Shown here: piece by piece, positions 368-63,792 of the stretch
Layout of the letters: each line of letters opens with the position of its first letter
Numbering within the stretch: the first letter of the stretch is position 1
Assembly (NCBI GenBank): GCA_029339195.1
Contig: JAPTJF010000261.1
Span: 1 to 64,000, forward strand
Length of the DNA: 64,000 nt
Reading direction: 5' to 3'
From: Micractinium sp. NFX-FRZ
Taxonomy: Eukaryota; Chlorophyta; Trebouxiophyceae; Chlorellales; Chlorellaceae
Notes under the pieces: model-generated
The model's database searches: none
Told to the model about the DNA's origin: nothing
What the model saw: only the letters and a program-made list of their open reading frames with translations
Translations under genes and position numbers: made by a program

Positions 368-3300
368 GCCTCTTTGAGGTGGGGGGCACCAAGATATCAC
401 AGCCCTTTGACGGCGACGGCATGCTGGCCATCTTTGCCTTCAAGGACGGCAAGTGCTTCTTCAACAACAGCTACGTGCGCACCGAAGGTGAGCGAGGGCA
501 GGTCGGGGGTGGGGCAGGGCGGCGCACTTGCCGTCTTTGCCTTCGAAAGAGGGAGGTGTTTTGCTACTAGCTGTTGAACATTTAATGCGTACACACAGAA
601 GTTGAGACAGCATGGGGCGAGTGGCTGGTGATGCGATGAGCTGCAATGGGCGGGGGCGGGCCTGCCTGCCTGCCTGCCTGCCTGCCTGCCCGCTTGCCTG
701 CCTGCCCTGCTTGCGCACAAGAAACATACCTGCCTGCGGTCTTCCTGCCAACTCCCCAAGTCTAGATCTCCTCCTCCCGCATTCCCCACGCCCCTGTTTG
801 CCTGTCCCCCTCCTCCAACACGCCACACCCCTCACAATTATCCCCTCGCCAGGCTTCCAAGCAGGAGCAGGCAAGGCAGGCAAAGCGTGGCCGGTGCCTT
901 GCTGCGTCCTGGCCCGCCTCTCCTGCCAGAATGGGATCTGTCCCGCTTGTCCTTCCCCCTCCCTTCCCACAAGCAACATGCTGCACCTCCCTGCTATCTC
1001 CCTACTCTCCCTCATCCTATCCTCCCCCTTCCTCCGCCCCCCAATCGCTGACAATGCAGGCTTTGTGAAGGAGCAGCAGGCACAGCGCATGCTGTACCGC
1101 GGCGCCTTTTCTGTGGGCAACCCCGGGGGCGGCTGGTTCTACAACCCCTTTGACCTGTCAGTCAAGGGCATCGCCAACACGGGGGTGGTGCACTGGGGCG
1201 GCAAGCTGCTGGCGCTGTACGAGGTGAGCTGGGCAGGGGCAGGGGGGGGCGTAGACACCCGCTGACGTCTGCCAGCATTGACAGGCCGTTGGGGTCCGTT
1301 GGAATGGCGGCCTGTCTTCTGCTGTGTCTGCTGCGCTCAGGGAGAGACTGGCCTGCTTGCTTGTTTGGGCTTACAGTCTGTTCTCCCATAGCGAAACGTG
1401 CGACACATACCAAGTGTGTTTCGCTGGATGTGTGGGTGGGTTCAGCACAGGCACGACGTCACCTGGCACTGTAGGTCGGGCCTGCCGCCCTGCCAAGGCT
1501 TGCCCAAGTCACGCCCCTCGTGGCTGTATGCCTGCCTGCCTGCCCTGCACCACGACCTGCACCTACCAGCTGCCCCCTCACTGCCAACTGCACTGGCTCT
1601 TCCTGTCTTTCAAATAGCAACACCTCTTGCTTCCACTCGCCCCCGTCTGCCTTCAGCGCGACCTGCCCTACCAGCTGTCCACGCCTGACCTGCACACCCA
1701 GGGCCAGACGGTCAGCGTGCCCAGCACAGCGCCCTACTTTGGCGCGCACTACCGCATCACAGCGGTGAGTAAACGGGGGCTGTTGATCATTCTTTGTCAT
1801 TGTATTCGTGATTAGCATTTTTCGAAGGGGCGATTCCTACTTGGGGGCACACTACGGCATCACACAGGCATGCAGTTTCAACAGCAGGGTGCCAGCATTG
1901 AGGGACTCGACCGTGCCTGCTGCTCTCCCCCTGCTGCCTGGCCACCCCAGCTGTACGCTGCTGTACCGTGTGCCTCCCCTGCCCCTGCTTCCCGGGCTAG
2001 TCCCTTCCTGCTCTGGCCCACGTCGGTCTCCCTCTGCCTGCCTGTTCCTGCGCTGTGCGTACAGGAGGCGGATGGCAGTCGGCGGCTGGTGGCGTTCAAC
2101 GCTGCCGAGGTGGGGAAGGCCAACCGCATCAATGTGTTTGAGTATGGCGAGGACATGAAGATGCTGCACAGGTGCGGGAAGCTGGTAGGGTGGGTGGATG
2201 GATGGGCGTAAGTGGAGGCCAACCGGGGCAACACGTTTGAGTATGTACAAGAAATTGACGATGATGATCAATGCACACGTGTGTGGGGGTGTGGTGGGCA
2301 GGGTGGCAGGGGCGGGCAGCGGCATTTGTGGCCCTCCGTCATCACGATTCGGCCCCTGCAGCTCGCTCATCCCTTCTCACCCCCCCCCCCCCCTATCCCT
2401 CCCCTTGCCCCTACTCCCTCCCCAGGACGGAGTTTGAGCTGCCGGGCGCCGCCTTTGGCTTCTTCCACGACTTCCTGGTCACCCCAAACTACTACCTCTT
2501 CCTGGCGAATCCCAGTGAGCGGTGCGGGGCTGCTTGGGTAACGTGCTTTACCAGAAGGGGGTTCTAATTGGCTGACGAAGGTTGGGCTGGGAAGGCGGAG
2601 CACGCCACCCCACAACATGCCTCACTCCAGGGCCCCCCCAACCCCGCTCCCGCTGTCGCACAAGTGCAGTGTCCTTGGACCTGTGGAAGATGGCCACCAA
2701 GTACATGTTTGGCAAGGTTGGTAGCGCCTGCATGTACTGCCTGTACTGCCTGTACTGCATGTACGACATGCACTAGGTTTCCCTGAGCTATGTCTGTATA
2801 TACCAGGCCCAAGTGCACCGCCTGCCTGCACAGCCTCCCTGTCTTTCTCGTGCACAACAAGGGTACACACCCGTGCCCTCGCCACCACAGCCACTGCAGG
2901 CCACTTCTCTTCTCCCTCACAGTGTGGCACGCCCTGCCCACAGACTGCTTTCTGCTGGCTGCCTCACCCCGCACCCCTGGCGGCATTTTGTGCAAATTGT
3001 GGGAAGGAGAGAAGACCCATGGTTCGCCTGCTCCGGCTGACCAACCGCTCCACTGTGGCTCACCCCTCGCCTCGCAGGCCTGCATCGCCGATTGCATTGT
3101 GTGGGATGCACACAAGAAGGGCAGGGTGCACGTGATCCCGCGGCCCGGCCGTGGCCTGCCCTTCCACCCCGCAGGTGGGCGGCAGGGCCAGGGCCGGGGC
3201 CGGGGCCGGGGCAGGGCAGGGCAGGGCAGACGACTGTTTGGCAGGTCATTTGTGATGGATGCTCGGGTTGGTGGGGGTGCCGGGCGCTCTCTCTTGGCTG

Positions 3301-5971
3301 AGGATTCCACGCACCAGCACCTGCATCCCGCATTACACAACCTGCCCGGCCAGCTGACTACCCACTGCCCCCACCCCACCCCCGCCTCGCCCCACCGACA
3401 CACAACACACACACTTGCCTGCCCCCTGCAGACCCGCTGGCAGTGTGCAACGCTGTGCCACGCTTTTGAGACGCTGTGCCACGCTTTAGAGACTGCCACC
3501 TTCTCTTCTTCCCACTTGCAGAGCCCCATTATTGGCCCCTGCCCACCTGTTCCCCTGCAGACCCGGCTGGGGGCCCGCGTACCTTTGACACCGCCCCCTT
3601 CTTCTCCTTCCACCACGCAAACGCCTTTGAGACGCGCCTGCCCAGCGGCGCCCCCGCCCTGGTGCTGGACACTGTGGCCAACCACGACGGCATCGACTTC
3701 AGGTGTGTAGCAACCGGTGTGCTATATCCTCATTGGTGTTGTTCATGTGACATGTGGGTGGGGCGCAAGCATTAACCGTGTTTGCGCCACTGCGGGTAAA
3801 TTAGGCTCCTCCCTTCCAGTGACCCCCCCTGCCGTGTGCCCTCCCGCCTGGCTGCCCCTACTGGGGACGGGGCCCACCCACTACGATGACTGTGACGTTG
3901 CATAACACCAGTTGGGAGCTTATCTGCCACCCTCCCGCTGCAGCGCCAACTTTGAGACGGGGCCCACCTATTACGACGACAACGAGGGGCGGGGCACCCT
4001 CACGCGCCTGGTGCTCGACCTGCAGGTGGGGCGGGTGGGGGCTTAGGGGGGAGTTTTGTGTGTGGTTGCGGCGAAAACGGAGGGACAGGAGTAGGCACCC
4101 TCACGCGCCTGGTGCTGACCTGCAGGCTCTAGTGACATTCTCAAAAGTATAGCTCACACTCCTGCTAGCACGCTCATGCCGTGCAGGCCGGCACCGCTGC
4201 CCAGCACCGCTTGATGGACCGCTCCTGCGAGTTCCCATCGGTGGCGCCCTCAGGCAAGGGGACAGAGAACCAAAACAAGGCCACCCTGGCCACCTGTCCG
4301 CCCGTCTGCCTTGCATGCTCTGCATGGGTGGCACTACATGGGTGGCACTGCATGGGCGGCACTACCCTCCCTGCTCTTGCCGCTGCCACCAGCCAAGGAG
4401 AGATGACGACAGGAACTGGAGCCAGGTTCGGCAGATGGGCAGGCCAGCCCCCATGCAGAGCTCTCCTCGGCTGGTAGCAGCGGCACTGCCTTCCTTGCTC
4501 TTGCCGCGGACTTTGCCAGATGCGCTTCAGCGCTTTGCAAATGCTGCTGCCCCACTCAACCATATGCAAACCAGCCTGGTCCGCCCCACCCCTCCTGCCC
4601 TGCGCTGCCTGCAGTGACAGGGCAGCCGCACCGCCACATGTACGTGGTGGGCAGCCGCTTCCCCTCGGCAGACACCTGGGGCGCGCCGCAGGTTGGTCTC
4701 GGTCGGGAAAGCCACCCTTTGCAGCCAACTCTGTGACTGTAACTCAAGTCTGAGCAGCATGCATTCTCATTCTCGCACATCTCAACGTCCTCTCCCTTCC
4801 GCTGCTGGCAAGCTTGCCGTTGCCGCCGCGCTGCTCGAATGCCGCTCCTGCCCTCAGCTCTCGCCTGCACCTGCCGGATCGCCCATCCGCATTACTCCCT
4901 GCTCCCCCCACAGGTGGTGTGCAAGGTGTCGCTGGCGCCAGAGGCGGGTGTGTCTGCACCCTGCGGCAAGGAAGCGGTGCAGCAGGATGTGTACTACCCC
5001 GGCAAGCAGGCCTTTGCCCAGGAGCCCATCTTTGTGCCCCGCCCGGGAGGCCAGGCAAGCCCAGCGGCGCCGGGCACCTGTGGGGTCTTGCCCACAGGTT
5101 GATGAGGGATGGGGGTTTGGCATGACGCAGGAAGCAGGGAGAAGCAGGTGGCGTGTGACGCCTGCACAACTCCTTCAATACCCTGCATGCTTACTACACA
5201 CTCCTACCACCACCCTCCCACCCTCGGACCACCGTCTCATGTCATCCGCAGGCGGAGGACGACGGGTGGGTGCTGGCGCTGGTGTATGACGCTGCAGAGG
5301 GGCGCACGCAGCTGGTGATTCTGAACGCACAGAACCTCTCAGGTGTGTGGGGTGTGTTACAATACAAGTTGTGCATTGTGTGGTGCACCGCTGCATGGGC
5401 GGGGGTGGGGCGCCCTGGTGGTCCTTCCGGAAGCTCAGAACCTGTCGGGTGGGCGGCGGCCACTTCTCTCGGGAGCCTCTACTGCTTGTGGTAGGATGGG
5501 AAGATGCCGGCAGTTGCGTGGGATGCACCGAGCCTGGCACCTGGATGCCTCCACACGACGCCCTCTACCCTCTCTCTGTTGTGCACCAACCTCCCCGCTT
5601 GCTCCGACCTGCAGCGGGGCCGGTGGCAAAGATCAAGCTGCCGCACATGCTGCCCTTTGGGCTGCATGGCAGCTGGACGGGCGCCTACCTGGGGCCACAG
5701 CCGGGGGAGGTGAGCGGGGCTGAGACGGCGCTGTGGCCGAAGTCTTTGCTGCCGCCCGTGTGCCGGTTTGTCGGTGTGCCGGTGCACGCCATCATGGCAG
5801 TTGTCTCTATTTCGCATTGATTGGAATGGATAGGATAAGGGCGATCGTGCGCAGAGTGACCTGCGTCCCCTGCCTCCCTCAGCTGCCCTTCCCCCTGGCC
5901 GCCTGCCTCCCTTGCAGCCCTATGCCCCCACCCTGCACGATATCCGCAACGGCGTCCAGGCGGAGCCTTGA
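368..5971 (+). CDS. Carotenoid cleavage dioxygenase (CCD/RPE65 family), 5' partial
   Basis: Non-haem iron enzyme that splits carotenoids or apocarotenoids with O2. Fifteen exons: 368-487, 1060-1223, 1657-1764, 2065-2171, 2426-2514, 2670-2716, 3078-3174, 3561-3702, 3944-4025, 4187-4253, 4615-4691, 4914-5054, 5252-5342, 5615-5709, 5918-5971. All phases agree and give about 493 residues ending TLHDIRNGVQAEP-stop. Family marks: FDGDGML and YVRTE near the start, NTGVVHWGGKLLALYE, and four candidate iron histidines in GAHYRIT (exon 3), FFHDFLVT (exon 5), FHHANAFE (exon 8) and GLHGSWTG (exon 14). The first exon enters in phase 1, so the N-terminus (roughly 60 or more residues by family length) lies left of the window. 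Introns at 4254 and 5055 start with GC. Several introns hold decayed copies of neighbouring exons. The subclass (CCD1, NCED or apocarotenoid oxygenase) cannot be decided from sequence alone. Confidence 0.94.
521..573 (+). repeat. Exon echo of dioxygenase exon 1
   Basis: About 50 bp in intron 1 repeat, in degenerate form, the exon segment at about 420-475 that encodes LAIFAFKDGKCFF. The copy reads LAVFAFERGRCFA in its own frame. It is displaced by about 98 bp and is not joinable as an exon. Confidence 0.7.
661..704 (+). repeat. CCTG tetranucleotide repeat
   Basis: About seven uninterrupted CCTG units followed by imperfect ones in intron 1 of the dioxygenase gene. Similar CTGC/CCTG tracts recur at 13171-13194 and 17839-17894, always in introns. 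Confidence 0.9.
1831..1867 (+). repeat. Exon echo of dioxygenase exon 3 end
   Basis: The intron copy encodes YLGAHYGITQ and mirrors the exon 3 end YFGAHYRITA at 1735-1764, including one putative iron-ligand histidine. It is displaced by about 97 bp and lacks a usable donor at the matching place. Confidence 0.75.
2207..2268 (+). repeat. Exon echo of dioxygenase exon 4 end
   Basis: The intron 4 copy (VEANRGNTFEYVQEIDDDD in translation) matches the exon 4 segment GKANRINVFEYGEDMKM at about 2111-2165. Displacement is about 100 bp. The copy is degenerate. Confidence 0.75.
2380..2393 (+). repeat. Poly-C tract
   Basis: Fourteen consecutive C residues in the pyrimidine-rich region before the exon 5 acceptor. 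Confidence 0.9.
3863..4126 (+). repeat. Exon echoes on both sides of dioxygenase exon 9
   Basis: Exon 9 is 3944-4025. Upstream, 3863-3892 copies its start region (GTGPTHYDDC versus ETGPTYYDDN). Downstream, 4095-4126 copies its last 33 bases almost perfectly, missing one base, and still ends in ctgcag. Displacements are about 92 and 103 bp, so this exon is the centre of a three-unit tandem array. Confidence 0.85.
5415..5456 (+). repeat. Exon echo of dioxygenase exon 13 end
   Basis: Intron 13 contains a copy of the exon end that encodes LVILNAQNLS together with the start of its donor region. The copy reads LVVLPEAQNLSG with a short insertion. Displacement is about 105 bp. Confidence 0.7.
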
Positions 5972-33700: not shown

Positions 33701-35010
33701 ATAACACTTGCACAGCAGCACGCCACAACAGGCAACAGAAAGAAGACCGAAAGACAGAAGAACACATACCTTGTGCACATCTAGCAGCGCCAGGTCGTGC
33801 CGGCGCAGCACCAGCAGCATGCCCCGGCCCCCGGCGTAGATCAGCTGCCCATCGTGGGACAGCACCGCCACCTGGCCGCCCGGCCCCATCACCGGTGTCA
33901 CCTCGCTGCCCACGCTCATGCGGCTGCTGCTGCTGGGCTGCCGTGACTCCAGCTCTGCGGTGGGATAGGGACAAGGATGTGGGGCAGGTAGGTAAGGGGG
34001 GCGTGCAGGCAGCAGAGGAGGCGAGGGAAGCGAGGCCAGGCAGAGGCAGAGGACCACAATGGCAGAGCATGAGGCGTGCAAGGCGGTGAAACAACGTGAC
34101 GCAGCGCACATGGCTGGATGCGGCATAAAATGCGGCCCCCAAAAACTGCCCATACCAGCGGCACCACCCCGTCTCTTTGCCACTTCCTCCCGCCAGACCC
34201 GGCACCTCACTGTCCCCCCTACTGCCCGTGAGCCTGCCATACACATGCCCCCGAACACGCACTCACTCACCCACCCACCTATCGCCACCATCGGCAGCTC
34301 CTTCTGCCTGCTGCTGTCCCGCAGGCTGAGCAGCAGCGCCGGCCCGGCGCCCCGGCTCACCAACACTTCGTCCTCTCCCAATTGCTGCTGCCCCTGCTGC
34401 TGCTGCTGCTGCTGCGGCTGGTCAGGCTGTCCGCCCTGCTGCTGCGCCTGCTGCGCCGCCTGCTGCTGCACGTCCTGTTGCGGCTGCCCCGCCCAGGCCA
34501 GCTGCACGACGGCCCCTCCCGCCGGCGACAGCTGCAGCTGGAAGCGGCGCGTGCCTGCGGCCACATCCCAGCCCGCCAGGCTACCGTCGGCGCCACCCGT
34601 CAGCAGCGTCCTCCCGTCGGCGCTCCACAGCAGCGCAGTGACATCTGCATCGCTGCTGTGCCCTCCCTCCAGGCGACACGCCACCCCACGGGTCTGATAG
34701 TCAAACAGGGTGATGACCCCGCCCGCACAGCCCGCCGCAAGCAGCGTGCCCCATCGGTTGAATGCCAGGCAGCGGGCGGGCGGGCCGTCGGTGCTCAGGC
34801 GCTCCTCAATGCGCTCCGGCAGGCCCACCAGGTCGCTCACATCTGCGCATGGGACAGTTATGCAGGGGCAGGAGGGGGCGCAGGATGAAACAAAAGCAAA
34901 CAAGAGGAGGGCTGCCCTACGAACCCCGCCGGTGCGCGGTGCTCAGGCAGCGGCGGCAAAGTATTGCTGCCTCCTGCGGCCGCCCACGCACCCAGCAATC
35001 CGGCAGACAT
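30789..35010 (-). CDS. RBBP5: RBBP5/Swd1 homologue, WD40 subunit of COMPASS (H3K4 methyltransferase)
   Basis: Nuclear beta-propeller that bridges the SET subunit and ASH2L in Set1/MLL complexes. Nine exons in transcript order: 35010-34992, 34842-34279, 33954-33770, 33503-33065, 32845-32731, 32390-32297, 31981-31923, 31619-31549, 31240-30789; 665 residues. The start is a 19-nt exon encoding MSAGLL. Diagnostic segments are CLAFNRWGTLLAAGC (31-45), LLWSADGRTLLTGGADGSLAGWD, GGQVAVLSHDGQLIYAGG, a final repeat ending IDIWAK, and ENWSAFAPDF (476-485) followed by the acidic DEYFEPEDEFD (492-502). The last two match the hinge and ASH2L-binding region of RBBP5. Gln-rich inserts lengthen the propeller loops, and the C-terminal about 150 residues are Ala/Gly-rich with KRQR near the end. 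Intron 3 holds copies of the exon 3 end. Confidence 0.94.
33551..33764 (-). repeat. Two tandem echoes of the RBBP5 exon 3 end
   Basis: The true exon end encodes RRHDLALLDVHK (33770-33805). In transcript direction the next intron repeats it twice, reading CRRDLALLGAR (about 33665-33705) and RRQDVALLDV (about 33551-33590). Each is followed by similar A-rich intron sequence. Spacing is about 115 bp. Confidence 0.88.
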
Positions 35011-47596: not shown

Positions 47597-47735
47597 AGAC
47601 GGGCGGGCGGCGATGGGGCGCTCGCAAGGCGGGCCCAGTATGGAACCCGGCACGCTTGCGCAAAGCATGCACCCCGCAGCCTCCGCCCCACCTCCTCGTT
47701 CAGCACGCTTTGTTGACGCTCGCTCCTCGCTCCGC

Positions 47736-50170: not shown

Positions 50171-53100
50171 ATGTCGCTGCTCAGCGACCGCAAGCTGCTG
50201 CTGCACTTTCGCACCTCCTACTTTACACAGGTCGGTGAACCGTTTGTGACACCGTGAAATAGATGACCATTGTTTCATGTGCTGCCAAGGGCGGGATCGC
50301 GCCCCCAAGCGATCTCCCCCTCCCTTTCGGCCTGCCCCTGCCCTGCAGTGGGGCGAGCACGTGGCGGTGTGCGGCGAGGGGCCGCTGTTCGGCAACTGGG
50401 ATGTGAAGAAGTGAGCGCCCTGGTGGCGGCGGCAGAACCCTGCCGCCGCTGCCGCCAGTGCCGCTGGCGGCACGAGTGCAGCAGTTCTTACCTGTTCAGA
50501 ACTGCTGCCTGCTGCCCCTAATCGATGCTGCAGCAGGCTGCTTGTAGCCAAGCTGCCTGGCGAGCAGCATAGGCGCATGCATGCTGCGCCCCCGCCAGAA
50601 TGCCCGCAGCAGTGCCCGCTGCTTCCCTCCCCACCTGCCGCACCCTCCACCCTGCACCCCGCCTCCCTGGCACACCCTCCTGCCCGCCTGGCTTGCAGGG
50701 CGCATTGGCTGAGCTGCCGGCACCTGGGGGAGGAGCTGCTGTGGGAGGGGCTGGTGCCCATCCCTGCGGTACGGGAGTTCACGTACCGCCTGGCGGTCGT
50801 CAACGAGGCATTTGAGGTGCTCAAGTGGGCCAGCGAGCGGCACACAGTGGTGCTGCCTGAGGGCCTGGAGGATGGAGCCATTGGTGAGTTGCAGAACGGG
50901 GGCTGGGAGAAAGGGCGTGAGGGATGCTAAAGGGGTGAGCAAGCCGCACATGGGGGTGACGCCTGATGGCCTGGAGGACGGGGCGGTCGGTGGGCAGCAG
51001 GAAGCGTTTCAGCAAGGGCAAGTGAGGTGCTTGGAGTGGGCCAGCAGCGGTGCTCCCTGGAGGGGTGGTCAGGGCTACCCTGCTTGCGTGAGGGATCGTT
51101 GGGGCTGGTCAGGGGGCGAATGGTGGGGGTGAGCATGCGCCCTTCTCCCCCACCGCTGAGCCCTTCATTCCACAAGCCAGTGCGTGTCCCCGCTTTCGTC
51201 TGCAGTGGACGTTGATGAGGCATGGACTGACGAGGGGCACCCCTCGCTGGTGCTTGCCCGCTCCGCGTTTGCGCGCGTGGTGTGGCGCAACCGCAGCACG
51301 GCCGGCGACGGCCGCGTGCTGCGCCTGCAGCCGGTGCCCAACGAAGTGGTGGTCCGCTTCCAAGTGCAGTGAGTGCTGCTGACGTTGTGTGCCTTGTTCC
51401 ATGCATATGCTCTCGTGGTGTGCTGCTGCCCAGCGGGGGCTTGCTGGTACAAGCCGTGGCCGCTTCAAAGTGTGGCAAGTCGCTTTGTCCACCCTGTCAT
51501 GCTTTGCATGAAGTGCAGCAAGAGCCAATCTGTGCTGATCCCTGCATGACGGAGGATGGCAGTGGAGCTTCGGCTCCGTTGTATTCTGCTGTTCCCCTGC
51601 CAATCCTGAGTGCCAAGCCTACTTTCCTCTCCGCCCCGCCCTGCCCCTTCCTCGTATGCAGCGACGGCGAGCTAAAGGAGGGGGAGGCGGTGTGCATACT
51701 AGGAGGGGCGGCCCAGCTTGGCAACTGGCAGCTGCAGGTGCGGCGGCCACGCCCGGACACGACCGCCTGCTAGGGGCGCACCTGGCCTGGCCTGGCCTGT
51801 CCTGTTCACAATTGTGCAAAACCTGCTACACCACAGAGCCGATTTGCTGCTGTGCTTGCTGCTCACAGAACGGCGTGCTGTGGACGTCCGCGGCGTGACC
51901 AGACTGCCGCTGCCTCACTGCTGCTGGGGGTGCCGCCTGCCGCCCTTTTGGCACGGCTGCAGCCAGCACTGGCGACACGAGCCCGCCCACCGCTGTGGCC
52001 TTATGTGCCTCCCCGCCTCCCTGCCACGTCACGGCCAGCTCACCGCTGCTGCTGCCCCTGTGCTTTGTCGACTGGCTGCAGGAGGTGCTGGCCATGAGCC
52101 CCCTCACGCCCTCGTGCTGGGAGGCAGAGGTGCGTGGGTTTGTGGGTCATCGGGTGGTGGGGAGCTGGGGCGCTCTCATATGGCCCCGCCAGTGCAGCCG
52201 TCCACCGTGCTGCGCCTGCTGTGCTCCCCCAGTGCACGTGTGCCATTTGCTTTGCTCTGTGGGGCATACTCTGTGGGCTGCTCCCGATGGCCCAGGGGAG
52301 CATTCCCTCCGGCCGGCATCTCTTGCGCCGCCTCCGCCCTCTGCTCCGTGCGCCCTGCTGCCGCACACACACTTTGACTGGCCCTGCTGCCCTGCCATGC
52401 TGCCCTGCCACGCTGCCACGTAGGTGCGCCTCCCGCTGTCCAGCTTGCCCTGCACCTACAAGTACGGCATACGCCGTGCCGACGGCAGCCTGCATTTAGA
52501 GGCGGGAGAAAACCGCATGGTGGGGCTGGGCTGGGCGGGGTTGCGGTGGGTTTTGCTTGAATGGAGCTGCAAGCGGGATAGGGGTGGACTGCCGTGGATG
52601 GGGGCAGGGGTGGGGCGGGGCGGGACGTTCACTGGGTGGGTGACGCCCTCCTTAGCAGTCAGCGGCCGGCTGGGACTTTCGTAGACGGGCCGTCACTCGG
52701 TTGCTGCGACACAGCCATGAAGCCTTTGTGAAGGTCGGCCACAATGAACAGCCATCACTCCATAACCTTGTGCCCCGCAGGTGGCCCTGCCCGCCAACGA
52801 CGGCGCCCGCCCCCCCGTCCTGGTGGCCCGCTTTGACGGCTGCTTCCGGCGCGCGCAGCGCTGGCGCGGCGCGGGCGTGGCGGTGCCGGTGTTCAGCCTC
52901 AGAAGGTGCGCGCCATGCCGGGCTCTTGGCTGCACTATATCGCCTCCCAGCTAGTGCTCACATCGCGGGGACGGGCAAGCGTTATGGACCTCGCTCGCGC
53001 GCCCAGCCAACCCATTTCACCTATAAGGGTGGACGCTTTTCAACCATTGTTGAACCCTGCTTGCAGCGGCCAGAGCGTGGGGGCGGGTGAGTTTCTGGAC

Positions 53101-56100
53101 CTCATGCCCCTGGTGGACCTGTGCGCAGCCACCGGGTTCAGCCTCATCCAGGTGCGCTGTGCGTGCTGTGCATGCTGAGCATGCTGTGGTCGAGCTGCTT
53201 GCCGTGCTGGGCTCGCTGTGCAGTTGTGGTTCTTCCTGCGCTGGCCCCCTGCACCAGACTGTATCCCGCTGCACGTGTGTGCGTTTCACCACTGTTCTTT
53301 TAATTTTTACCTTGAACAACATCCTGGCTCCACTGTGGTCGCGGCTGTGACTGTGTTGAAAGAAATAAACTCTTCTGAGCCGCCATCCCTCGCTCCTGCC
53401 GCTGGCCACCCGCTGCCAGCAGGTGCTGCCTGTGAGCGACACCAGCGTGAGGGGCACGTGGAGGGACTCCTACCCCTACTCCTCCCTCTGCGTCTTTGCG
53501 CTGCACCCCCTCTACCTGCGCCTGCAAGCGCTCTCAGGTGGGTTGGGCGTGTGACGTTCTGGGGTGTGCGTGTGTATGGAGGCAGCGTGTTGCTCAGGCA
53601 CAGCCAATGGTTAAATCATCACCTGCCTGCCAAGCACCCACCTGAATTCTGACAGGCAGTGCCTGCCCGCACGACTTTCAAGCCGTTCTTGAAGCGGCCT
53701 GGCAACACTCTGCTGGTCCTCCTTGCTGTGGTCGTAGCAAGTCATCTCCTGTCTTCTTCCTCCCCCTACAGATCATCTGCCCGAGGACATCCAGGCTGAG
53801 ATTGAGGAGGCCCGGCAGGCGCTGGACCTGCCCGAGGGGGTGGACTACGAGCAGACCATGGAGGTGTGCGCCTGCTGCTCATTGTGCGTGCCTGCTGCTC
53901 ATTGTGTGTGCCTGCTGCTCACGGTGTGCTTCTACTGCTCACACGTAGCATGCGTGCGGCTTTGTTTTGCCTGTCCGCCGGAGATTAAGGAGCCAACCAG
54001 CGCTGAGCTGAGCTCTGGTCGGCAGGCTGGCAGGCTGGTGCGCACCCTCCCCGGCTCTCAGCACCTCCCGCCGACCCTCCCCTACTCCGCTCCCCCACCC
54101 CTGGCCTCACAAGCCAAGCTTCGCGGTTGTACACCAAGTGTCAACACCTGCAGGGGGCAGGCATACCCGCCCTGCAACCCACCCCCTGCCGCTCCCCCCG
54201 CCCCTGCCCCCCGCCCCCTTCTCCCCTTCAGCCGCAGGCCAAGCTGCGCATTGCAAAGGAAGTGTACACCTGCAGGGGCAGGGGCAACATGTCCTCTGAC
54301 CCAACCCCTGCCGCTTTTCCTCCCCCCTTCCCCTGTTCCGCCGCAGGCCAAGTTGCGCATTGCGCGGAAGGTGTACGAGCTGCAGGGGCGGGCGGATCTG
54401 GAGAGCGAGGAGTTTCGGAAGTTCAAGGAGGACGCCTGGGAGTGGCTGCAGGTGGGGCGGTGGTGGGTCTTGTCTCCCTTGCTTCCCGTTCCACAAGGCA
54501 GTGCACAGGCGCTGGGGCGGGGACCCACGCCGTCCTCCCAAATGTACGCTACACTCACTCCCCCCCATGTCGGCTAGCCTCGGTATCTGTGCACGCCCCC
54601 TCACCGCCCTCTCACAGCGTGCCCCGCCTCTTCCCTCCCTGCCTGCCCTGCAGCCCTACGCCGTGTTTTGCATGCTGCGCAAGGTGTTTGGCACGGGGGA
54701 GCACTGGCGGTGGGGCGCGCTGAGCACGCCAACGCAGGAGGTGAGCTGGCAGCGGGGCATGCACAGCAGGGCTGAGCGGGCGGGCGGGCAGGCCGGCAGG
54801 ACGGGCTTGCTGCATACTTGTGTGGCTGTGGCAAGGGCTGACCGCAGCAAACTCGAGTCGCGGTGCCAGACAGGTTAGAGCACTGCTGCACCCCTCACTC
54901 ACCTTGCACTCAAATTTCCACATCCCACATCCCACCTCTGCCGCCCCCGCAGGTGCTGGACCGCCTGTCCAGCCCCAGCCAGGACTGGCACCCCAGCCTG
55001 CTCTTCTGCTACTGGCTGCAGTTCCACCTGCACCGCCAGCTGACGCAGGCCAGCGCCTATGCCGCCTCACGCAACGTCGCTCTCAAGGGGGACCTGCCCA
55101 TTGGTGGGTGAACAAAGCATCGGTGCCTGCTGCTCTCCCCTTGTGTTCCTGCTCCTGCCTTCCTTCTGCTCCTTCTTCTGTCCTGATCCTGCTTTCGGTC
55201 CGCTCCTTCTTTCGTTCTGTGGCTTCTGCTGCGTTTCGTCCGTTCCGGTGTGTGGGTGCGGCGGCCGGCCAGGCCAGAGCCAATACTGGCGCTGCTTTGT
55301 ATGTTTGTGCCACAGCTTCTGCCTCACAGGACTGTGCTCATTTCTGGCTGGCCTGCCCCCTCTGCAGGCGTGGACAAGTGCAGCGTGGACACGTGGCTCG
55401 GCCCCAAGCTCTTCCGAATGAATGTTGGCACCGGTGAGCGCTTGTGCTGTGTGTGGGGGGCTTGGTGATGCTGGCACCACCTGTACCATGGGTCGGCGTG
55501 GAGACAACCTGGGGGGAGGCGCTAGCTTGTCAACTTCTCCTGCGCTCTGCACGGGGAGGCGCAAGGCATGTGTCTACCGGGGTCAGATCGAGCAGGCGCG
55601 CTGCCAGATTTGTTCGGGCCCCAACAGCCATACCTGGATTTTCGATGGGGCCAACCGTCCTCAAAACTGATTTTGTGTTGTGCAGGCGCCCCTCCCAATC
55701 ACTTTGACCCCTCCAGCCAGACCTGGGTCTCCTGAATAATCCAACCATCTCTTCAATTGCTTACTGTTTACCTTGTGGTGCGCTGTGCAGGCGCCCCCCC
55801 CGACTACTTTGACCCCAACGGCCAGAACTGGGGCTTCCCCACCTACAACTGGGAGGAGATGGCGCAGGATGGCTACCTCTGGTGGCGCCGGCGCCTGGCG
55901 CACATGGCACAGTGAGTGTGCATGTGGTGTGCCTGCCAGCGTGGGTTTCGTGCAAGGGAAAAGGGGGCAGGGAGGGGGGCACCGCCTCATGGCACTGCTC
56001 CTGCTGCGCCGCCCCCTTCAGTGCGCTCCTGCGTGCGCTCATTGCCGACTGCCGACTGCGTGTAGTACTGGACGGATATCATGTGTGCCAGCCCTGTGCC

Positions 56101-59100
56101 CCACTCGCCTGTGTGCTGTTGCCATCATCGCCTTTGCACCGCCCCTGTACTGCCTCTCCTGTGGGTACCGCAGGTACTTCCATGCGTACCGCATCGACCA
56201 CATCCTGGGCTTCTTGCGCACCTGACCTGCTGTACTGCCGTCTGTACTGCACCCCCTGTACTGCCTCGTCGTACCGCAGATACTTCCATGCGTACCGCAT
56301 CGACCACATCCTAGGCTTCTTCCGCATCTGGGAGATCCCGGGAGACTGCTGCTCAGGCATCCTCGGCCGCTTCCGCCCCTCAATACCACTCTCCCGGCAG
56401 GTGAGCCGTCACCGTGGTAACGTGGTTATGTGATACCGTGGTAATCTGTTAGTGCACAGCGGTCCAACATCCTACAGCAGGATGTGGGGCTGCACGGCAT
56501 CTGGGCAGTACGTGTGCCGCCGGCTGAGCACGTAGGCATCCAGGCTACCGGCACTTTGTGCACCTCGAGACTCACCGATGCACACTGGTTGTGCCAAATG
56601 CCCCTGCACAGGAGCTGGAGTCCCACGGCACTTGTGACACCTCCTCATCTGCAGACGTACTGATACAATCCCCCCTGGAGCTGGAGTTTCACAGCGCATT
56701 ATGCACCGATTGTATGCACACCGATTGTATGCACCGATTGCATGCACACCGATTGCATCCTGTTCCTCTGCACAGGAGCTGGAGTCCCACGGCATCTGGG
56801 ACTTTGACCGCCTCTGCCAGCCCTGGATCACCGACGAGGTGCGCCGACCACAACACAACTGGATGCACACTTGGGGGTTTGCTTATCTTGGGAGGCTGGC
56901 GGGGCCGGGGACAGATGGGGATAGGGTGGGGGGGGGGGGGAGGGAGGGGGGAACCTGGACCACTTAGGAGGTGTGCCGGGATCAATTCTGGTATGCCCAC
57001 GTGGGTTCTCATGTGAGGGTGCTCTTGTGTTGCTGGAGGATGGCGGTGCAGGTGCTGCGCAAGGCAGTTGGTACCGTCACGCTGTGCTGCGCTGAGCAAC
57101 TGCACATGCCTGTTCTGTCCCCGCGGCTGTGCCCGGTGTTGCGTGCGACACATGGCGCTGAGCTTGCGCCTCTCGACTCCATGCACCATTGCTCTGCTGA
57201 CGAGTCCCTTTCCTCCCTTGCAAGCAGGTGCTGCGCGAGGTGTTTGGCGCTGAGCTGGCGCCCGAGGTGGCGGCGCGCTACCTGCAGGAGCAGGCGGGCG
57301 GGCGGTACCGCTTCCGGCAGCAGTACGCCAGGTGGGCAGGGGCAGGCTTGCTGCGCTCCTGTGCGTGCTGTGCTGCAGCACTCATGTGCATCAAGCTTGC
57401 GGCTGGTGCCAGAGCGACCGCTGCCTCCCTCCCCCTACCCTTCCCCCACCCACCCACCTATACTGCGCAGCGAAAGCGCGCTGGCGACGGCGCCGCTGTG
57501 GCGAGGTCTGGCGGCAGATGCGGCACCTGAAGATGCAGAGGCGGTGCGGCGCGGGCTGCTGACGCTGCGGCAGAATGTGGTGCTGCTGCGGGATCCAGAG
57601 GACCCAGACGCCTTCTACCCGGTGAGTATAATGTGATGCCTACTTCGGTGATTGATTAGTGCTGCTGCTGCAAGCCGTGGTGCCGGTGCGGGACTTAAAC
57701 GGCCCAGAGGCCTTCGTTCTTGTGTTGCATGGGATTCACCCTGATCGAGAACTGCACGGGTGGATAGATAGGATTCAAGGCACAGCGAATTCTGATTGCC
57801 TGGTGCCGTACTGTTGCAAGATTTACACACGTGGTTACCTAGGATTCAAAGCACAGCAACGTTTAGTAAGGCCTGGTGCCTCACTGGTGCATTCCCATGA
57901 CCCCTCCCCTTCTCCCTCCACCCCACCCCACCCCGCAGCGCTTTGCCCTGCACACCACCAGCAGCTTCAAGTGCCTGGAGCTGCACTGGCAGGAGGAGCT
58001 GCAGCGGCTGCACAACGACTACTACCACCACAGACAGGTGGGTGACCCAGCGGTGGTGGCCGTGCAAGTACAAGTGCTTGCACAGCGGTGCTGTCGGCAC
58101 CGAATGCCTGCTTGAGCTGACTGCCCAAAACCGATGGTGGATGCGCAACATGACTGTTTGTTTCAGATTTGGCATTTGCTTTAGCTGAGTGCCTGCTTGC
58201 ATGATGGCACTGGGGACGAGGGCGGCAAGCGTGAAAGAGAGGGGAGGGCAAGAGGCACCACCAAGCAGGTGTGTTGACTCCCAGGGTGCCCCCTGAGCTC
58301 CCCTCCCCCCACCCGTTCATCTCCCGACTTGCCGCCCGCAGGACGCGCTGTGGCGGCAGCAAAGCCACCGCACGCTGCCGGCCCTGATGGGCGCAACCGA
58401 CATGCTGGTGGGTTGGGCCTCACACGCCTGCGCCTGCCAGCTGCCAGCCGCCCCCGCCTTGCTCGTGCAAGCATGCATGCAAGCAAGCAAGCATGCATGC
58501 CGGCATGCACGCGGGCCTCCACCCCCCACAGTGTTTGCTTCCGTGGCACAAGCAGTATTCCCCCAGACGTAGCGCCCTGCATACCATCTGCGTTATGCCC
58601 TCTCAGCTGCCTGCCCCTCCTGCCACGGCACCTGCCGCTGCCGCTGCTGCAGGTGTGCGGTGAGGATCTGGGCATGATCCCCGCCTGCGTGCACCCCGTC
58701 ATGGCTGAACTGGGCCTCATAGGTGTGTGGGCAGGGCACAAATGACTGTCTGTTCCTGCATGCCTCCGACATGAACGCATCATGGGTGTGCGAGGCGGCA
58801 ACACAGCCCACATGCTCTGCAGCCGTGTGGCAACTCCCTGCCCCTCGAGTGCCCCCTTCAGGCCCCAGCATGCACCCGGTTTGTTCAACACTGCACCCCG
58901 TTTCCTCCTCCCTCACCCCGCTCAGGCCTGCGCATACAGCGCATGCCGGCGGAAGAGAACATCCCTGCCTGCAGGGACCCCCGTTAACCCCTCCACGTTG
59001 CCACAATGCAACCTCCTGCCCACGAGTGCCCTTCACAGGCATCACTACGGCTTCCCTTCAACTCCGCAACTCCAATCTTCTTGCCATCCCCCCTGCTTGC

Positions 59101-60925
59101 AGGCCTGCGCATCCAGCGCATGCCGGCGGAAGAGAACGCGGCGTTTGGAGATCCGCTGGCCTACCCCTACATGACGGTAGCCTCCCCCTCCAGCCACGAC
59201 ACCTCCACCACCCGGGGCTGGTGGGAGGGCGACGCGCAGCGGCGGCAGGAGTTTTACGAGGAGGTGGGTGGGTGCGGCGGGGGCTGGGTTTGGGTGGAGA
59301 GGAAGGGCAGATGTGTGCCAAGGTTTGCTCCGTTTTCTTCCTGCTGATTGCTTTCTACCGCACCTTGCCGCATTTCAATACTACCTACGTACATATCATC
59401 ACCGGGCTACGGAACCTCCCCCGGCCCCCCGTTTCTTTTTTGCCGCCCGGAATCCCAAGTTTGATTTGCAGCCCCCTAATAGGGCAGTGGGCAGGGGTGG
59501 GGCAAGCAGGTGGCCCAGAGGATCGTGGAGGACGCCCTCCCTGCCGCCCTGTTCCGCTGGCTGCCTGCACCCCTTCGGCCCCACACCGCCCCACACCGCC
59601 ACTGACGCTCAAATGTGACCGCGCCCCCCCTCCCCTGCACCGCAGGTCCTGGGCGGCGAGGGCAAGGCGCCCGCTCAGTGCACGCCCGCCGTGCTGGAGC
59701 ACATCCTGCAGCAGCACATGGACAGCCCATCCCTGCTGGCCATCTTCCCACTACAGGTGCGCTGCGCCGTGCTGTGCTGCGCTGTGCTGTGCTGTGCTGT
59801 GGTCATGTGTACAGGACGTGGGTGCCTCCCGGTCTTCCAGCTGGCGTGGACATCCGTCAACGACCCTTCCTCACAACTTATGACCACGTGAAACGCTCCG
59901 CTCCGCCCCGCCCCCACCTCACCCCGACCGATGTGCAGGACCTGCTGCCGCTGTCGCCGCGCCTGCCCGACTGCCAGCCGGACAAGCAGCAGATCAACGA
60001 CCCCACAAACCCGCAGCACTACTGGCGGTGCGTTCCTGGCCCCAGCTGCTCCTTTGCTGCTTGCTGTTGGCGGGCGTGGGTGGGTGCATTAGGAATCGAG
60101 ACAGCAATGAATCCACAACCCGCGCCGTGGTATGCTCCACTGTTGATGTGTGTGCTCTCTCTGGGTTTGTTGAGTCCAAGCGCTGCGCAGCCCCAAGGCC
60201 TCTCTGTCTCTCTGCTCCCGCCCCTGCCCCCCCGCCCCTGTACCATGCCCGCACATCCGTGTGCCACGCACTGGCTGCGCTCGAGGCCCCTCAGGCCCAC
60301 TGTCTGGAGTGCCTTCCCGTGCTCGTGAGGCCCCCCATTTGCTGCAGCTCCCGACTGCACACACATCAGGACGTAGGCAGGCAGCAGAACCAGTACAACA
60401 GACCGCCGCCCCCTACTCCCCTGTATGCTTTGCTTGAGCCCTAACGTTTCCTGCACCCCTGGGTGCAGGTACCGGCTGCACGTGCGGCTGGAGGACATTC
60501 AGGAGGATGAAGACCTGCGCTGCCTCCTCACAGACATGCTGCAGGTGAGCAGAGCATGTGGTTCTGTGTTGTGTGTTTGTGTGTGTGTTCAGGAGGAGAA
60601 AGCGTGTCCAGGCGGGGATTGCCAGCATGGCTGCCTGCTCACAGACATGCCGCAGGTGCGGACAGTTGTTTGTGGCTGTGTGTTGTCAGCGGTGCTCTTC
60701 TCCTTTGCTGCTACTGCTAATGCTGCTGTTGCTGCTGCTGTGAATGGGACGCGTTGCTGCCTCAAAACGGGGTGCATCACAGCAGGTGCGTCACCAGCCG
60801 CCGCTGCCCGCCCTTGATGCCTGCCTCTCACATCCACGCATGCTGCCCGCCGTCGTGCTGTGCTGTGCTGTGCTGTGCTGCAGGCGGCGCAGCGGTACCA
60901 TGGAGCAAGCACCACGTCGTGCTAG
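50171..60925 (+). CDS. DPE2: 4-alpha-glucanotransferase DPE2 (cytosolic disproportionating enzyme)
   Basis: Transfers glucose from maltose to soluble heteroglycan in the cytosol during starch breakdown (GH77). Exons: 50171-50230, 50349-50410, 50699-50883, 51206-51368, 51662-51737, 52082-52129, 52424-52519, 52781-52905, 53067-53151, 53423-53537, 53772-53863, 54347-54451, 54654-54740, 54953-55103, 55368-55433, 55791-55911, 56280-56400, 56776-56838, 57228-57331, 57471-57621, 57939-58037, 58342-58407, 58653-58722, 59103-59263, 59646-59756, 59939-60027, 60469-60544, 60884-60925; 929 residues. Two CBM20 starch-binding domains (about 10-125 and 147-245; FGNWDVKK, LGNWQLQ) precede GH77. Catalytic residues by motif: Asp554 (YRIDHILGFF), Glu751 (CGEDLGMIP), Asp803 (SSHDTSTTRGWW). 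VDTWLGPKLFRMN then DPNGQNWGFPTYNW is typical of DPE2. The length is close to plant enzymes (about 950). No transit peptide. Many introns carry exon echoes. Confidence 0.97.
50958..51062 (+). repeat. Exon echo of DPE2 exon 3 end
   Basis: The intron carries gatggcctggaggacggggc (copy of the DPE2 exon sequence LEDGAI at about 50860-50883) and, further on, cttggagtgggccagcagcg (copy of VLKWASERH at about 50816-50845). It is a rearranged or two-step duplication of about 100-200 bp. Confidence 0.8.
54110..54285 (+). repeat. Two tandem echoes of DPE2 exon 12 start
   Basis: The acceptor/exon junction at 54341-54385 (ccgcaggccaagttgcgcat, then aaggtgtacgagctgcaggg) is preceded by two decayed copies at 54110-54160 and 54234-54285. 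The latter has an intact gccgcag/gcc acceptor and reads AKLRIAKEVYTCRG. Spacings are 125 and 109 bp. Confidence 0.9.
55677..55732 (+). repeat. Exon echo of DPE2 exon 16 start
   Basis: ttgtgcaggcgcccctccca and actttgacccctccagccag repeat the true acceptor and exon start (GAPPDYFDPNGQ) at 55783-55830. The copy reads GAPPNHFDPSSQTWVS-stop. Displacement is about 106 bp. Confidence 0.9.
56168..56224 (+). repeat. Exon echo of DPE2 exon 17 start, with intact acceptor and in-frame stop
   Basis: taccgcag/gtacttccatgcgtaccgcatc duplicates the true junction at 56272-56320 with few changes. Spliced from exon 16 it keeps phase, encodes YFHAYRIDHILGFLRT and then meets TGA at 56222. It is therefore a candidate poison exon. 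Displacement is about 106 bp. Confidence 0.9.
56601..56700 (+). repeat. Echoes of DPE2 exon 18 start
   Basis: cccctgcacaggagctggag and tcccacggca at 56601-56630 copy the acceptor/exon junction at 56766-56796. A shorter copy ggagctggagtttcacagcg lies near 56676. Short tgcaccgattgtatgcacac repeats follow at 56702-56760. Confidence 0.85.
57657..57722 (+). repeat. Exon echo of DPE2 exon 20 end
   Basis: The copy reads VVPVRDLNGPEAFV where the exon (57574-57621) encodes VVLLRDPEDPDAFYP. A second intronic repeat pair (aggattcaaggcacagc, 57769 and 57841) lies just downstream. Confidence 0.75.
58467..58508 (+). repeat. Palindromic GCATGCATGC/AAGC repeat
   Basis: gcatgcatgc occurs twice around an AAGC triplicate in a DPE2 intron. 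The arms are self-complementary. Confidence 0.85.
58923..58966 (+). repeat. Exon echo of DPE2 exon 24 start
   Basis: caggcctgcgcatacagcgc and atgccggcggaagagaacat copy the true acceptor/exon junction at 59100-59140 (GLRIQRMPAEENAA) with one difference in about 40 bases. The acceptor AG is kept and the frame is open for a stretch. Displacement is 177 bp. It could act as an alternative acceptor. Confidence 0.92.
59767..59802 (+). repeat. CTGTG repeat in DPE2 intron
   Basis: GCTGTGCTGTG-type units directly after the exon 25 donor. A second tract is at 60855-60881, right before the last acceptor. Confidence 0.9.
60585..60664 (+). repeat. Exon echo of DPE2 exon 27
   Basis: The copy contains ttcaggaggagaaagcgtgt and ctgctcacagacatgccgca, matching IQEDEDL and LLTDMLQ coding sequence at 60497-60544. 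It ends in cag/gtgcgg, an intact donor. Displacement is about 110 bp. Confidence 0.88.
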
Positions 60926-61667: not shown

Positions 61668-63792
61668 CTACCACTGATAGCCGGTGGCTGTCAGGATGCT
61701 CATGGGGCCGCGCTCCGTCACATACTGCACCTCCTCCCGGCTCCGAACAAAGATGCTGCCCGCAAATGCCACCGAGTTGCAGCTGCATGAGGCCGGAAGG
61801 GGAGTGCGTGGGCGCAGGCGTGGGGAGGGGAGGGCGGGAGATGAGCAGTGACTTTGTGCATCGGGTGGCAGAGGTGCAGTGCGGGCCAGGTGAGGGAGGA
61901 GGAGGGCAAGGGTGGGCGGGAGGGCAAGCGTGGGCGGGAGATTGCCAGCTGGCTGGGGTGGCCGCCACAGCGCACGCCACATCAGCGGCGCAGCCAGCAC
62001 CAGCACTGCTTGCCTGCCTTGATTTTCCGACTGGCAAAAGGATAGCTTTTTCGCTGCTTTACATAACACCATAACTCCTGCTTGGAGAGTGTACACACCG
62101 TACTGCACACCCTGCAACGTACTCTGCACATTCCTGCAGCAAGCAGAGAGCCAACAGCGGCCTCACCTGACCGGGCCGTCGGCCTCTTGCCGCCGCGGCA
62201 CAACCATCATGAAATCTCGGGTGCAGACTGCAAGAAAGCAAATCAGACGCATACACATGAGAGACAGGCATGGGCAAGGTCGAGCACTGTGGAACGGTTT
62301 GTGGCAGCTGTTGGACGAGGCCGCCCGTGACTGCAGTACTGCCCAACGACCGCGCCAGGAGGCTGCAGCGGGGCATGCAGGCTTTGAGGCCATCGCGTGC
62401 GACACACAGCGCCAGCCGAGCAGACAAAGTCAACAATCGTTCGCAGCCACCCAGCCACTACCCATGTTGTGCGCCAGGCTGCTGCGTTTGGTGGATAAGC
62501 AAAGGCAACACGCCTCTAAAACACAACACGCCTCTGAAGCACAGGCACGCCACTCACCCATGTTGTAAGACAGGCTGCCGTCCCGGGGGCTCACCCCCGC
62601 CCGCCCCGTCTGTGCCTCCACAAACGAGCGGCAGCGAGCCATCAGCTGCCGGTACACGCCCTCCAGATACTCCCCAGCAGCCGGATCCACCGAACCTGCT
62701 GCCTCGGGAGCCGCTGCTGCTGCCCCCACTGCCTGCGGCGGTGGCACCTGTGCTGCTGCTGCCGCCGTCGCTGCCTGCTGCGCCTGCTGTGCCTGCCCGG
62801 GTGGCGCCAGGGTGGCAGCGAATGCGGCAAACGGAAGGTTGCGCAGCTCCGCGGGATGCCCCGCTGGACCTGCTGTGGTTGCTGCTGCGACGGCTGGCCA
62901 GATGGGTGGCCGTGCCAAGCTGCCATCACTGCTGCCGCTGCTGCTGCTGCCGCTGCAGCTGCAGCCGTCGAGAGGTAGCGGCACAATTTGCATGTGTTTG
63001 TGCGGCTGGCTGGCACCTGCACACAATTGGAGGGCGGAAGGCAAGTGTTGAGATGGAGTTGGAAGGGTGGAGGTGTGGGCGGGCAGCCGCCGCAGCACAG
63101 CAGAGGCAGCAGCAGCAGCAGACGCACCACAGGCGGCAGCAGCGGCGGGCAGCAGCAGCTGTAGCGTCCAGACACACAACGCAGCCAGCCGCTCCACCAA
63201 CCGCCCAACCGGTGGTGCATTCGAAACAACCAAACACAAGAGAAAACAAGCACCTGAGACGGGGCCGCAGTTGTAGAAGGCAAGCCCTCCATGCGGCATG
63301 GCCTGCAGGGGGGGTGAGCGGCACACGGCGGCAGGGCAGCATTGGCAGGCACGTGCCAAGCAGCTGACCTGGTCCGGCCAGAGCTCCCCGGTGCCAGCCC
63401 CCCACGCTTGCCCACACCGGCACCACTGCCCCACCTGGCGGCCCAATCCCCTGTCGCTAAGCTTACCGTGCCCTGCACTTCAAGCGCACCTGCAGTACCG
63501 CCCACGTGGCGGCCCAGTCCCCGGCATGCAAGCCATCCAGCGCTCCTTCACAAACACACACACACACTGAAAGTGGTGAACCCTCACCTGCAGTACCGCC
63601 CAAGTGACGGCCCAGCCCCCTGCCTAAAGTTTCCTTGACCTGCCCTGCACTTTAAGCTCACCTGCAGTACCGCCCACGTGGCGGCCCAGTCCCCGGCGTC
63701 CAGGTCATCCAGCTGCGATCGGAAGTCGGATGTGACCACCAGGCAGTGCCAGGGCACGATGTTGAACTTGTTGAGCAGCAGCACGTGGGAGG
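61668..63792 (-). CDS. Ap4A phosphorylase / ATP adenylyltransferase (APA family), 5' partial
   Basis: Cleaves diadenosine tetraphosphate with phosphate to ADP and ATP; HIT superfamily. Exons in transcript order: 63792-63662, 63302-63254, 63016-62558, 62227-62167, 61782-61668, giving about 271 residues. The first exon enters in phase 1, so the N-terminal part lies right of the window. Family marks in order: HVLLLNKFNIVPWHCLVVT, HGGLAFYNCGPVSGASQPHK followed by HMQIVPL. That is HxHxQ with the catalytic His, as in yeast Apa1/Apa2. A low-complexity Ala/Gln insert in the third exon is followed by YNMG, CTRDFMMVVPRR, then NSVAFAGSIFVR and the end GPMSILTATGYQW. The insert makes the protein longer than fungal relatives. 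Two copies of the first exon's end lie in the following intron. Confidence 0.92.
63461..63640 (-). repeat. Two tandem echoes of the Ap4A phosphorylase exon end
   Basis: The true exon/donor junction (63633-63716 on the plus map) is copied at 63461-63541 with only about five changes in 55 bases around cacctgcagtaccgcccacg. A more decayed copy lies at 63586-63625. Both keep the cag/gtg donor. The first copy appears recent. Confidence 0.93.

What the first reader, a model, noticed from the sequence alone, without database searches (positions are those of the whole stretch)
368..63716. Exon echoes: introns hold tandem, decayed copies of the neighbouring exon end and splice site
Seen directly in at least nine genes (dioxygenase, hydrolase, coiled-coil gene, RBBP5, NDUFS5, TMEM50-like, DPE2, Ap4A phosphorylase) at more than 20 junctions. 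Copies are always in the same orientation and usually displaced by about 75-180 bp, most often 100-120 bp. They span the splice site and range from near-identical to barely recognisable, so duplication appears ongoing. Tandem duplication across splice junctions is a proposed route of intron gain (segment duplication containing AGGT). Here it seems to be a continuous genome-wide process that builds and lengthens introns and seeds alternative exons. The preferred displacement hints at a specific mechanism (replication slippage, short-patch repair or fragment-sized re-replication).
Basis: partly seen in the sequence, partly recalled or inferred. Interest (0 to 1): 0.9.

Follow-up and report, generated by a model that had tools for sequence, protein, structure and literature searches.

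The report
Decaying exon-end copies inside algal introns
In this green alga, many introns carry a worn-down copy of the end of the neighbouring exon, most likely left by small tandem duplications across the exon-intron boundary that lengthen introns without changing the protein.

Summary
In 314 kb of this Chlorellaceae genome (window plus 25 other 10-kb pieces), 97 of 1073 exon ends tested have a direct copy in the adjoining intron (score >=16), against 0.96% for introns of other genes; 90 of 562 introns are affected. Outside the window the rate is 67 of 833. Most copies reach the splice site (67 of 97), donor and acceptor sides are alike, and half lie 88-120 bp from their source. They decay like noncoding DNA; introns with a copy are longer (median 315 vs 235 bp). 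Best reading: short tandem duplications straddling exon-intron junctions, where selection keeps the exon copy and the other decays. AGGT intron gain and alternative exons are not supported. Two features stay unexplained: units under about 88 bp are rare at junctions but not elsewhere in noncoding DNA (odds ratio 13), and the intron-derived part of each unit has faded more than neutral decay predicts. Single junction-spanning duplications are in print; nine searches of a partial library found no genome-wide account.

The parts
417..561 (+). exon 417-458 (donor side) and its echo 520-561 in intron 1 of the carotenoid oxygenase gene, d 103
   Evidence: score 18
1553..1695 (+). echo 1553-1593 upstream of acceptor; source exon 1659-1695, d 106
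   Evidence: score 19
1733..1864 (+). exon end 1733-1761 and echo 1836-1864, d 103
   Evidence: score 21
2117..2266 (+). exon end 2117-2166 and echo 2216-2266, d 99
   Evidence: score 21.5
3484..3644 (+). echo 3484-3545 and exon 3583-3644, d 99
   Evidence: score 20
3857..3980 (+). echo 3857-3890 and exon start 3946-3980, d 89
   Evidence: score 19.5
3993..4125 (+). exon end 3993-4025 and echo 4094-4125, identical but for one missing base, d 101; no match at score >=14 in the paralog's intron
5267..5446 (+). exon end 5267-5340 and echo 5377-5446, d 110
   Evidence: score 20
16707..17169 (+). junction-spanning duplications (displacements 117 and 238) with intron side still alike
18418..18602 (+). 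repeat 18418-18491 / 18529-18602, d 111, 88% identity; second copy begins with an exon end
23992..24157 (-). exon start 23992-24035 (with a few intron bases) and echo 24115-24157, d 123
25951..26109 (-). echo 25951-25996 and exon end 26065-26109, d 114
33610..33816 (-). head-to-tail pair 33610-33712 / 33710-33816, d 100, second copy partly exonic
50807..51000 (+). exon end 50807-50894 and echo 50914-51000, d 107, DPE2
54227..54392 (+). echo 54227-54282 (taken for an exon by the gene finder; absent from three relatives' proteins) and copy with the true exon start 54336-54392, d 109, DPE2
55674..55835 (+). echo 55674-55730 and copy with exon start 55779-55835, d 105, DPE2
56142..56330 (+). echo 56142-56224 and copy with exon start 56253-56330, 94%, d 111, DPE2
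56578..56802 (+). echo 56578-56638 and copy with exon start 56742-56802, d 164, DPE2
57564..57715 (+). exon 57564-57615 and echo 57664-57715, d 100, DPE2
58830..59137 (+). repeat 58830-58960 / 59008-59137, d 178; exon start 59103-59137 lies in the second copy
60519..60686 (+). repeat 60519-60572 / 60630-60686, d 111; exon end 60519-60544 lies in the first copy
63411..63713 (-). repeat 63411-63541 / 63581-63713, d 170, exon end 63662-63713; intron side still alike

Best explanation
Short head-to-tail tandem duplications, mostly under about 145 bp, arise in the noncoding DNA of this alga (seen as repeats; the mutation itself is inferred). When a unit straddles an exon-intron boundary, one copy of exon end plus splice site keeps working under selection. 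The other becomes intron passenger DNA, lengthens the intron and decays neutrally. Because the working copy barely changes, such events stay visible longer than duplications inside introns. The likely source is fill-in repair of breaks with long staggered overhangs (two nicks on opposite strands), which gives tandem duplications as long as the overhang (inferred from other organisms). The rarity of junction units under about 88 bp is best explained by a filter: a viable unit must carry a whole splice-signal set, or keep the two identical splice sites far enough apart (inferred, not shown).
For: 97 of 1073 sides at score >=16 vs 0.96% control, 90 of 562 introns, echo introns longer, p 1.6e-6. 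Donor 33, acceptor 34, both 4 of 71 events; 46 donor and 51 acceptor of the 97. 67 of 97 matches end less than 6 bp from the junction; the flank beyond the echo resembles the real intron flank at score >=10 in 37% of 97 (8% in the control), and in 57% of the 21 with exon identity >=0.9. Several pairs are head to tail with a gap near 0 (whose output was cut). Splice dinucleotides are lost about as other bases are (GT kept 17 of 33, AG 20 of 34). Codon-position differences are nearly flat. 18 of 19 non-junction noncoding repeats (score >=22) are also under 145 bp. 7 of the 9 echoes of the carotenoid oxygenase gene have no counterpart at score >=14 in a close paralog, so they come and go. The DPE2 model matches three relatives with one internal difference of more than two residues, itself an echo.
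Against: Simulated random contiguous duplications with neutral decay give a junction to non-junction ratio of 0.9-1.0 at d about 91-137; observed 49 to 7 at 90-140. They predict intron-side identity of 0.70-0.82 over the first 40 bp in high-identity echoes; observed 0.70 in the first 10 bp and 0.48-0.59 beyond. The model needs intron-derived DNA to decay at least 4 times faster than exon-derived DNA, or refreshing of echoes from the exon. Exonic parts are shorter than random breakpoints predict. The splice-signal filter predicts longer intron parts on acceptor than donor sides; the trend is there but not significant (p 0.18). Events cluster in some genes (0 of 2000 permutations), which the model does not explain. 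Reverse-complement matches also exceed the control slightly.
Confidence: 0.6

Rival explanations
1. Junction-directed copying: a process tied to exon-intron boundaries copies only 30-50 bp of exon end to a site about 105 bp away in the intron (a templated insertion with a fixed reach), not a whole tandem unit.
For: In the 25 of 49 events (d 80-140) with identity >=0.82 the median match is 53 bp with a 53-bp spacer and little intron-side similarity; simulated tandem units give about 97-105 bp and a gap of 2-4. Density corrected for visibility is 28 at 88-120 bp against 6 at 60-88 and 4 at 145-200 (x1000). Non-junction repeats lack the 88-120 peak (3 of 19).
Against: 57% of the 21 highest-identity events do show intron-side similarity beyond the control; some pairs are exactly head to tail; echo introns are longer by 80 bp at the median and 63-68 bp at the quartiles, more than an insert of about 45 bp would give.
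Confidence: 0.2
2. Tandem duplication as above, but the echo is repeatedly refreshed by gene conversion from the exon, which keeps the exon part alike while intron parts drift.
For: Exon parts outlive intron parts by more than neutral decay allows. The paralog's intron-2 echo carries the paralog exon's own variant at the two sites I could read by eye.
Against: The same echo could simply be younger than the gene duplication. The window's intron-3 echo looks, by eye, like the paralog's exon end rather than its own. No direct test.
Confidence: 0.12
3. The duplications make new introns by the AGGT route.
For: The model is demonstrated elsewhere (PMC3443670, passages).
Against: Signature in register in 2 of 582 introns at >=16, 0 at >=20. 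Displacement does not track intron length (Spearman 0.05 over 97).
Confidence: 0.03
4. Echoes are functional: decoy splice sites or alternative exon ends kept by selection.
For: About half keep GT or AG; one is good enough to fool a gene finder.
Against: Almost no codon-position bias, frame-breaking gaps; splice dinucleotides decay like the rest; 7 of 9 not shared with the paralog.
Confidence: 0.04
5. Assembly artefact or chance similarity of low-complexity introns.
For: Draft assembly of 838 contigs, reads not available.
Against: Copies are diverged to all degrees, direct matches far exceed inverted ones, controls at about a tenth of the signal, 23 of 26 pieces affected.
Confidence: 0.01

Closest known systems
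Tandem genomic duplication across an intron-exon boundary (potato RdRp gene; PMC4974935, abstract and results section read)
   Same: A tandem unit holding intron end plus exon start; splice signals copied with it; the paper also mentions an 83-bp tandem duplication inside an intron.
   Different: There one event made a new spliced intron with inserted exon. Here dozens of events appear to lengthen existing introns and leave the protein alone.
Intron gain by duplication of an AGGT-bearing exon segment (Rogers model; Gao and Lynch 2009, Hellsten 2011, seen only as cited in PMC3443670, passages, and PMC4974935)
   Same: Short tandem duplication within genes.
   Different: The unit here straddles an existing junction; the in-register signature was found in 2 of 582 introns.
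Tandem duplications from repair of staggered double-strand breaks (PMC5730883 and PMC8355091, passages; rice and Arabidopsis work seen only as cited there)
   Same: Direct head-to-tail duplications drawn from the segment between two nicks.
   Different: Mechanism not tested here; hardly any fresh breakpoints; junction enrichment is not part of that model.
Introner elements (recalled, not from a call)
   Same: Bulk change of introns in green algae.
   Different: Echoes are copies of each gene's own exon, not a dispersed family; exon ends match introns of other genes at 0.96% only.

Membership tests
Junction-spanning tandem duplication | Same orientation, source adjacent | tested here: met
   9.0% direct vs 2.2% reverse complement and 0.96% other-gene control
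Junction-spanning tandem duplication | Repeat includes or reaches the splice site | tested here: met
   67 of 97 end less than 6 bp from it; the other 30 stop 6 bp or more short
Junction-spanning tandem duplication | Copies contiguous; intron part duplicated too | tested here: inconclusive
   Some pairs exact; 37% of 97 show intron-side similarity at score >=10; the rest do not, and similarity is lower than simulations allow
AGGT tandem duplication intron gain | Intron length equals displacement, splice sites in register | tested here: not met
   2 of 582 at >=16, 0 at >=20
Staggered-break fill-in duplication | No or short microhomology at fresh breakpoints | not testable with these tools
   Too few fresh pairs; no population data
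Introner element | Same sequence in many unrelated introns | tested here: not met
   Exon ends vs introns of other genes at background
Minisatellite array | Three or more head-to-tail copies of a short unit | tested here: not met
   Arrays with period <=20 or >=3 copies were masked before the repeat-event counts; the 97 exon-end hits were not masked, and a few places hold three copies
Alternative or mutually exclusive exon | Reading frame and codon pattern kept | tested here: not met
   Codon positions 17.6, 17.5, 20.6%; 136 of 137 gaps not a multiple of three

The most novel reading that the evidence does not exclude
Exon ends are copied into introns by a junction-directed process with a reach of about 105 bp, active in some genes more than others, so that introns of this alga are continually rewritten from their own exons while the exons themselves change little.
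Probability: 0.18. Interest if true: 0.85.

Novelty: new variant of a known kind. Interest (0 to 1): 0.6.

Why it matters
It gives a direct record of how introns grow: in the sample about one intron in six still shows a piece of its neighbour exon. It makes the tolerance of splicing to duplicated splice sites measurable by unit size and side, and offers a natural assay of short tandem duplication. It also warns that gene finders may take echoes for exons, as mine did in DPE2.

Tried and rejected
RNA-templated copying: echo flanks compared with the next exon gave 5.6% of 89 at score >=14 against 0 of 421 in the control (>=10: 12.4 vs 4%); a small class, probably units that span a whole short intron, not the rule. 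Displacement set by exon or intron length: weak or absent (Spearman 0.21, p 0.04, and 0.05 over 97). A shuffle control (order-2, blocks of 400) reproduced repeat-rich stretches and was dropped in favour of far displacements and other-gene introns. Counts before masking arrays (20 pieces) showed no sharp peak, because tandem arrays dominate; the peak appears after masking and merging. Search for algal relatives' DNA with the DPE2 alignment in viral contigs and genome contigs: none. The Chlorella variabilis genome paper is not held, so an earlier mention there cannot be excluded. Literature searches, seen as listings: in an open-licence library only. Rows dropped before the main count: introns under 90 bp, and 51 of 1124 sides with under 25 bp of exon.
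Full report
Setting. The window is 64,000 bases, 65% GC, and is contig C261 positions 1-64000 of a 66.07-Mb assembly of 838 contigs. The DPE2 protein in it is 85% identical to that of Micractinium conductrix and 83% to that of Chlorella vulgaris (an unnamed record is at 89%), so the organism is probably a Chlorellaceae alga close to these.

Gene models. No annotation was at hand, so I trained a hidden Markov gene finder on the sequence, starting from long open frames and crude splice-site weights that I supplied; training sharpened these to GTGAG donors and TGCAG acceptors. On 314 kb (window plus 25 pieces of 10 kb) it gave 678 exons and 607 introns. The 29-exon DPE2 model aligns with three relatives (88, 84, 82% identity); the only internal difference of more than two residues is ten extra residues in the model. 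That stretch is the acceptor echo at 54227-54282, which the finder mistook for an exon. Some models fuse neighbouring genes and models are cut at piece ends, so gene counts are approximate; no RNA evidence was available.

The echoes are real. In the window, direct local repeats outnumber inverted ones 29 to 1 at 75-300 bp. Comparing each exon end (25-90 bp) with its own intron, for 562 introns of at least 90 bp and 1073 sides, gives 97 matches at score >=16 (9.0%). Introns of other genes give 0.96% (four draws per side) and the reverse complement in the own intron 2.2%. At score >=14 direct and control are 14.8% and 4.3%. Ninety introns carry at least one. The window has 30 of 240 sides, the other 25 pieces 67 of 833; 23 of 26 pieces hold at least one.

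Anatomy. Of 97 matches, 67 end less than 6 bp from the splice junction, with a median exonic length of 40 bp. In a general scan for direct repeats (simple arrays masked, overlaps merged, score >=22), 71 junction events under 300 bp split 33 donor, 34 acceptor, 4 both, with median displacement 111 bp. With a rough correction for visibility, the density of the 97 is 28 at 88-120 bp, 6 at 60-88 and 4 at 145-200 (arbitrary units; 88-120 vs 60-88 p 1.5e-5, vs 145-200 p 5e-12; pieces outside the window alone p 0.003 and 2e-8). Introns with an echo are longer, median 315 against 235 bp (p 1.6e-6). Echoes cluster by gene model (42 of 73 models; 0 of 2000 permutations as clustered).

They decay like noncoding DNA. 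Exon-echo differences are nearly flat over codon positions (236 of 1344, 236 of 1348, 282 of 1372), 136 of 137 gaps are not a multiple of three, and base changes run toward about 66% GC, the genome's own value (the equilibrium is my arithmetic from that table). GT is kept in 17 of 33 donor echoes and AG in 20 of 34 acceptor echoes, a little below what 80% identity per base predicts.

Tandem duplication as the source. Several pairs are head to tail, for example 33610-33712 / 33710-33816, and L012 5472-5559 / 5560-5647. The flank beyond the echo resembles the real intron flank at score >=10 in 37% of 97 cases (control 8%), rising to 57% among the 21 with exon identity >=0.9. Random duplications would hit donors and acceptors alike, as seen. 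The in-register signature of AGGT intron gain is near control (2 of 582 at >=16, 0 at >=20; out of register 22 against 4).

What plain duplication does not explain. I simulated random contiguous duplications in this sequence, with events inside coding sequence left out, neutral decay and the same detection. They give a junction to non-junction ratio of 0.9-1.0 at d about 91-137; observed 49 to 7 at 90-140. High-identity echoes should have matches of about 97-105 bp and intron-side identity 0.70-0.82 over 40 bp; the 25 observed have a median of 53 bp, 0.70 in the first 10 bp and 0.48-0.59 beyond. Lower-identity echoes (0.70-0.82) do fit the simulation on the intron side. Letting intron-derived bases decay 4-8 times faster brings the ratio to 3.3-4.7 and the intron side close to the data, but exonic parts stay too long. 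So either intron-derived DNA is far less durable than exon-derived DNA, or echoes are refreshed from the exon, or part of the events copy only the exon end.

A size filter at junctions. At score >=22, non-junction noncoding repeats under 300 bp number 19: 11 under 88 bp, 7 at 88-145, 1 above. Junction repeats number 71: 6, 51 and 14. The odds ratio is 13 (p 4e-5), and 8 (p 0.002) outside the window. At score >=18 it is 10 (p 1.4e-6; 10, 74, 28 against 18, 13, 4). Chance background, scaled by me from displacements of 1500-2480 bp, is about 6 junction and 1 other event at >=22, and about 19 and 10 at >=18. Geometry alone predicts an odds ratio of about 2 (from the ratios). My reading, not shown, is that a junction unit must carry a full set of splice signals or hold the two identical sites far enough apart. 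A mutational ruler that acts only at junctions is the alternative.

A paralog shows fast intron turnover. The carotenoid oxygenase gene has a close paralog on contig C760. Ten of 15 exons are at least 94% identical (range 82-99%) and four-fold sites differ at 21 of 242 (8.7%). Introns have diverged much more: 9 of 14 score above all 13 mismatched pairs, so some likeness remains, while 5 do not, and identity in aligned columns is 0.63-0.81 with 13-37 gaps, against 0.64-0.73 for mismatched pairs. The window gene has 9 echoes by this test and the paralog 3; 7 of the 9 have no counterpart at score >=14. For the rest of the window no such collinear partner showed up in the listed hits (only the best candidates are scored there), so this is one gene pair only; conversion between the paralogs' exons could also produce the contrast.

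Known and new. Tandem duplication across a junction is in print as a single case (PMC4974935); duplication from staggered breaks is in print in mouse and human cells and cited for plants (PMC5730883, PMC8355091, passages). The Coccomyxa genome paper passages I saw mention no such repeats. I found no genome-wide account in the listings of nine searches of a partial library. I therefore call it a new variant of a known kind.

Noticed in passing
window 1348-1411: A roughly 60-bp dispersed repeat inside an intron with many genome hits, mostly 80-88% identity; it contains a predicted 12-pair hairpin, three of the pairs G-U. Possibly a MITE-like or introner-like element.
   Followed up: partly
window 1-166: Near-identical copies (97-99%) at the start of contig C54 and on C730.
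   Followed up: no
window about 39809-40650: 854-bp match at 89% on contig C132, perhaps a mobile element.
   Followed up: no
L027 (C760:1-7000) vs window 368-5968: Close paralog with well-kept exons and strongly diverged introns; 8.7% four-fold divergence.
   Followed up: yes
window about 59323-59479 and 59755-59803: Dispersed repeats within the DPE2 gene shared with many contigs.
   Followed up: no
562 introns of the 314-kb sample: A slight excess of reverse-complement exon-intron matches (2.2% vs 0.96%), which may mean rare inverted copies.
   Followed up: no
L002 minus-strand gene: Highest echo load seen: 9 of 20 sides at score >=16.
   Followed up: no
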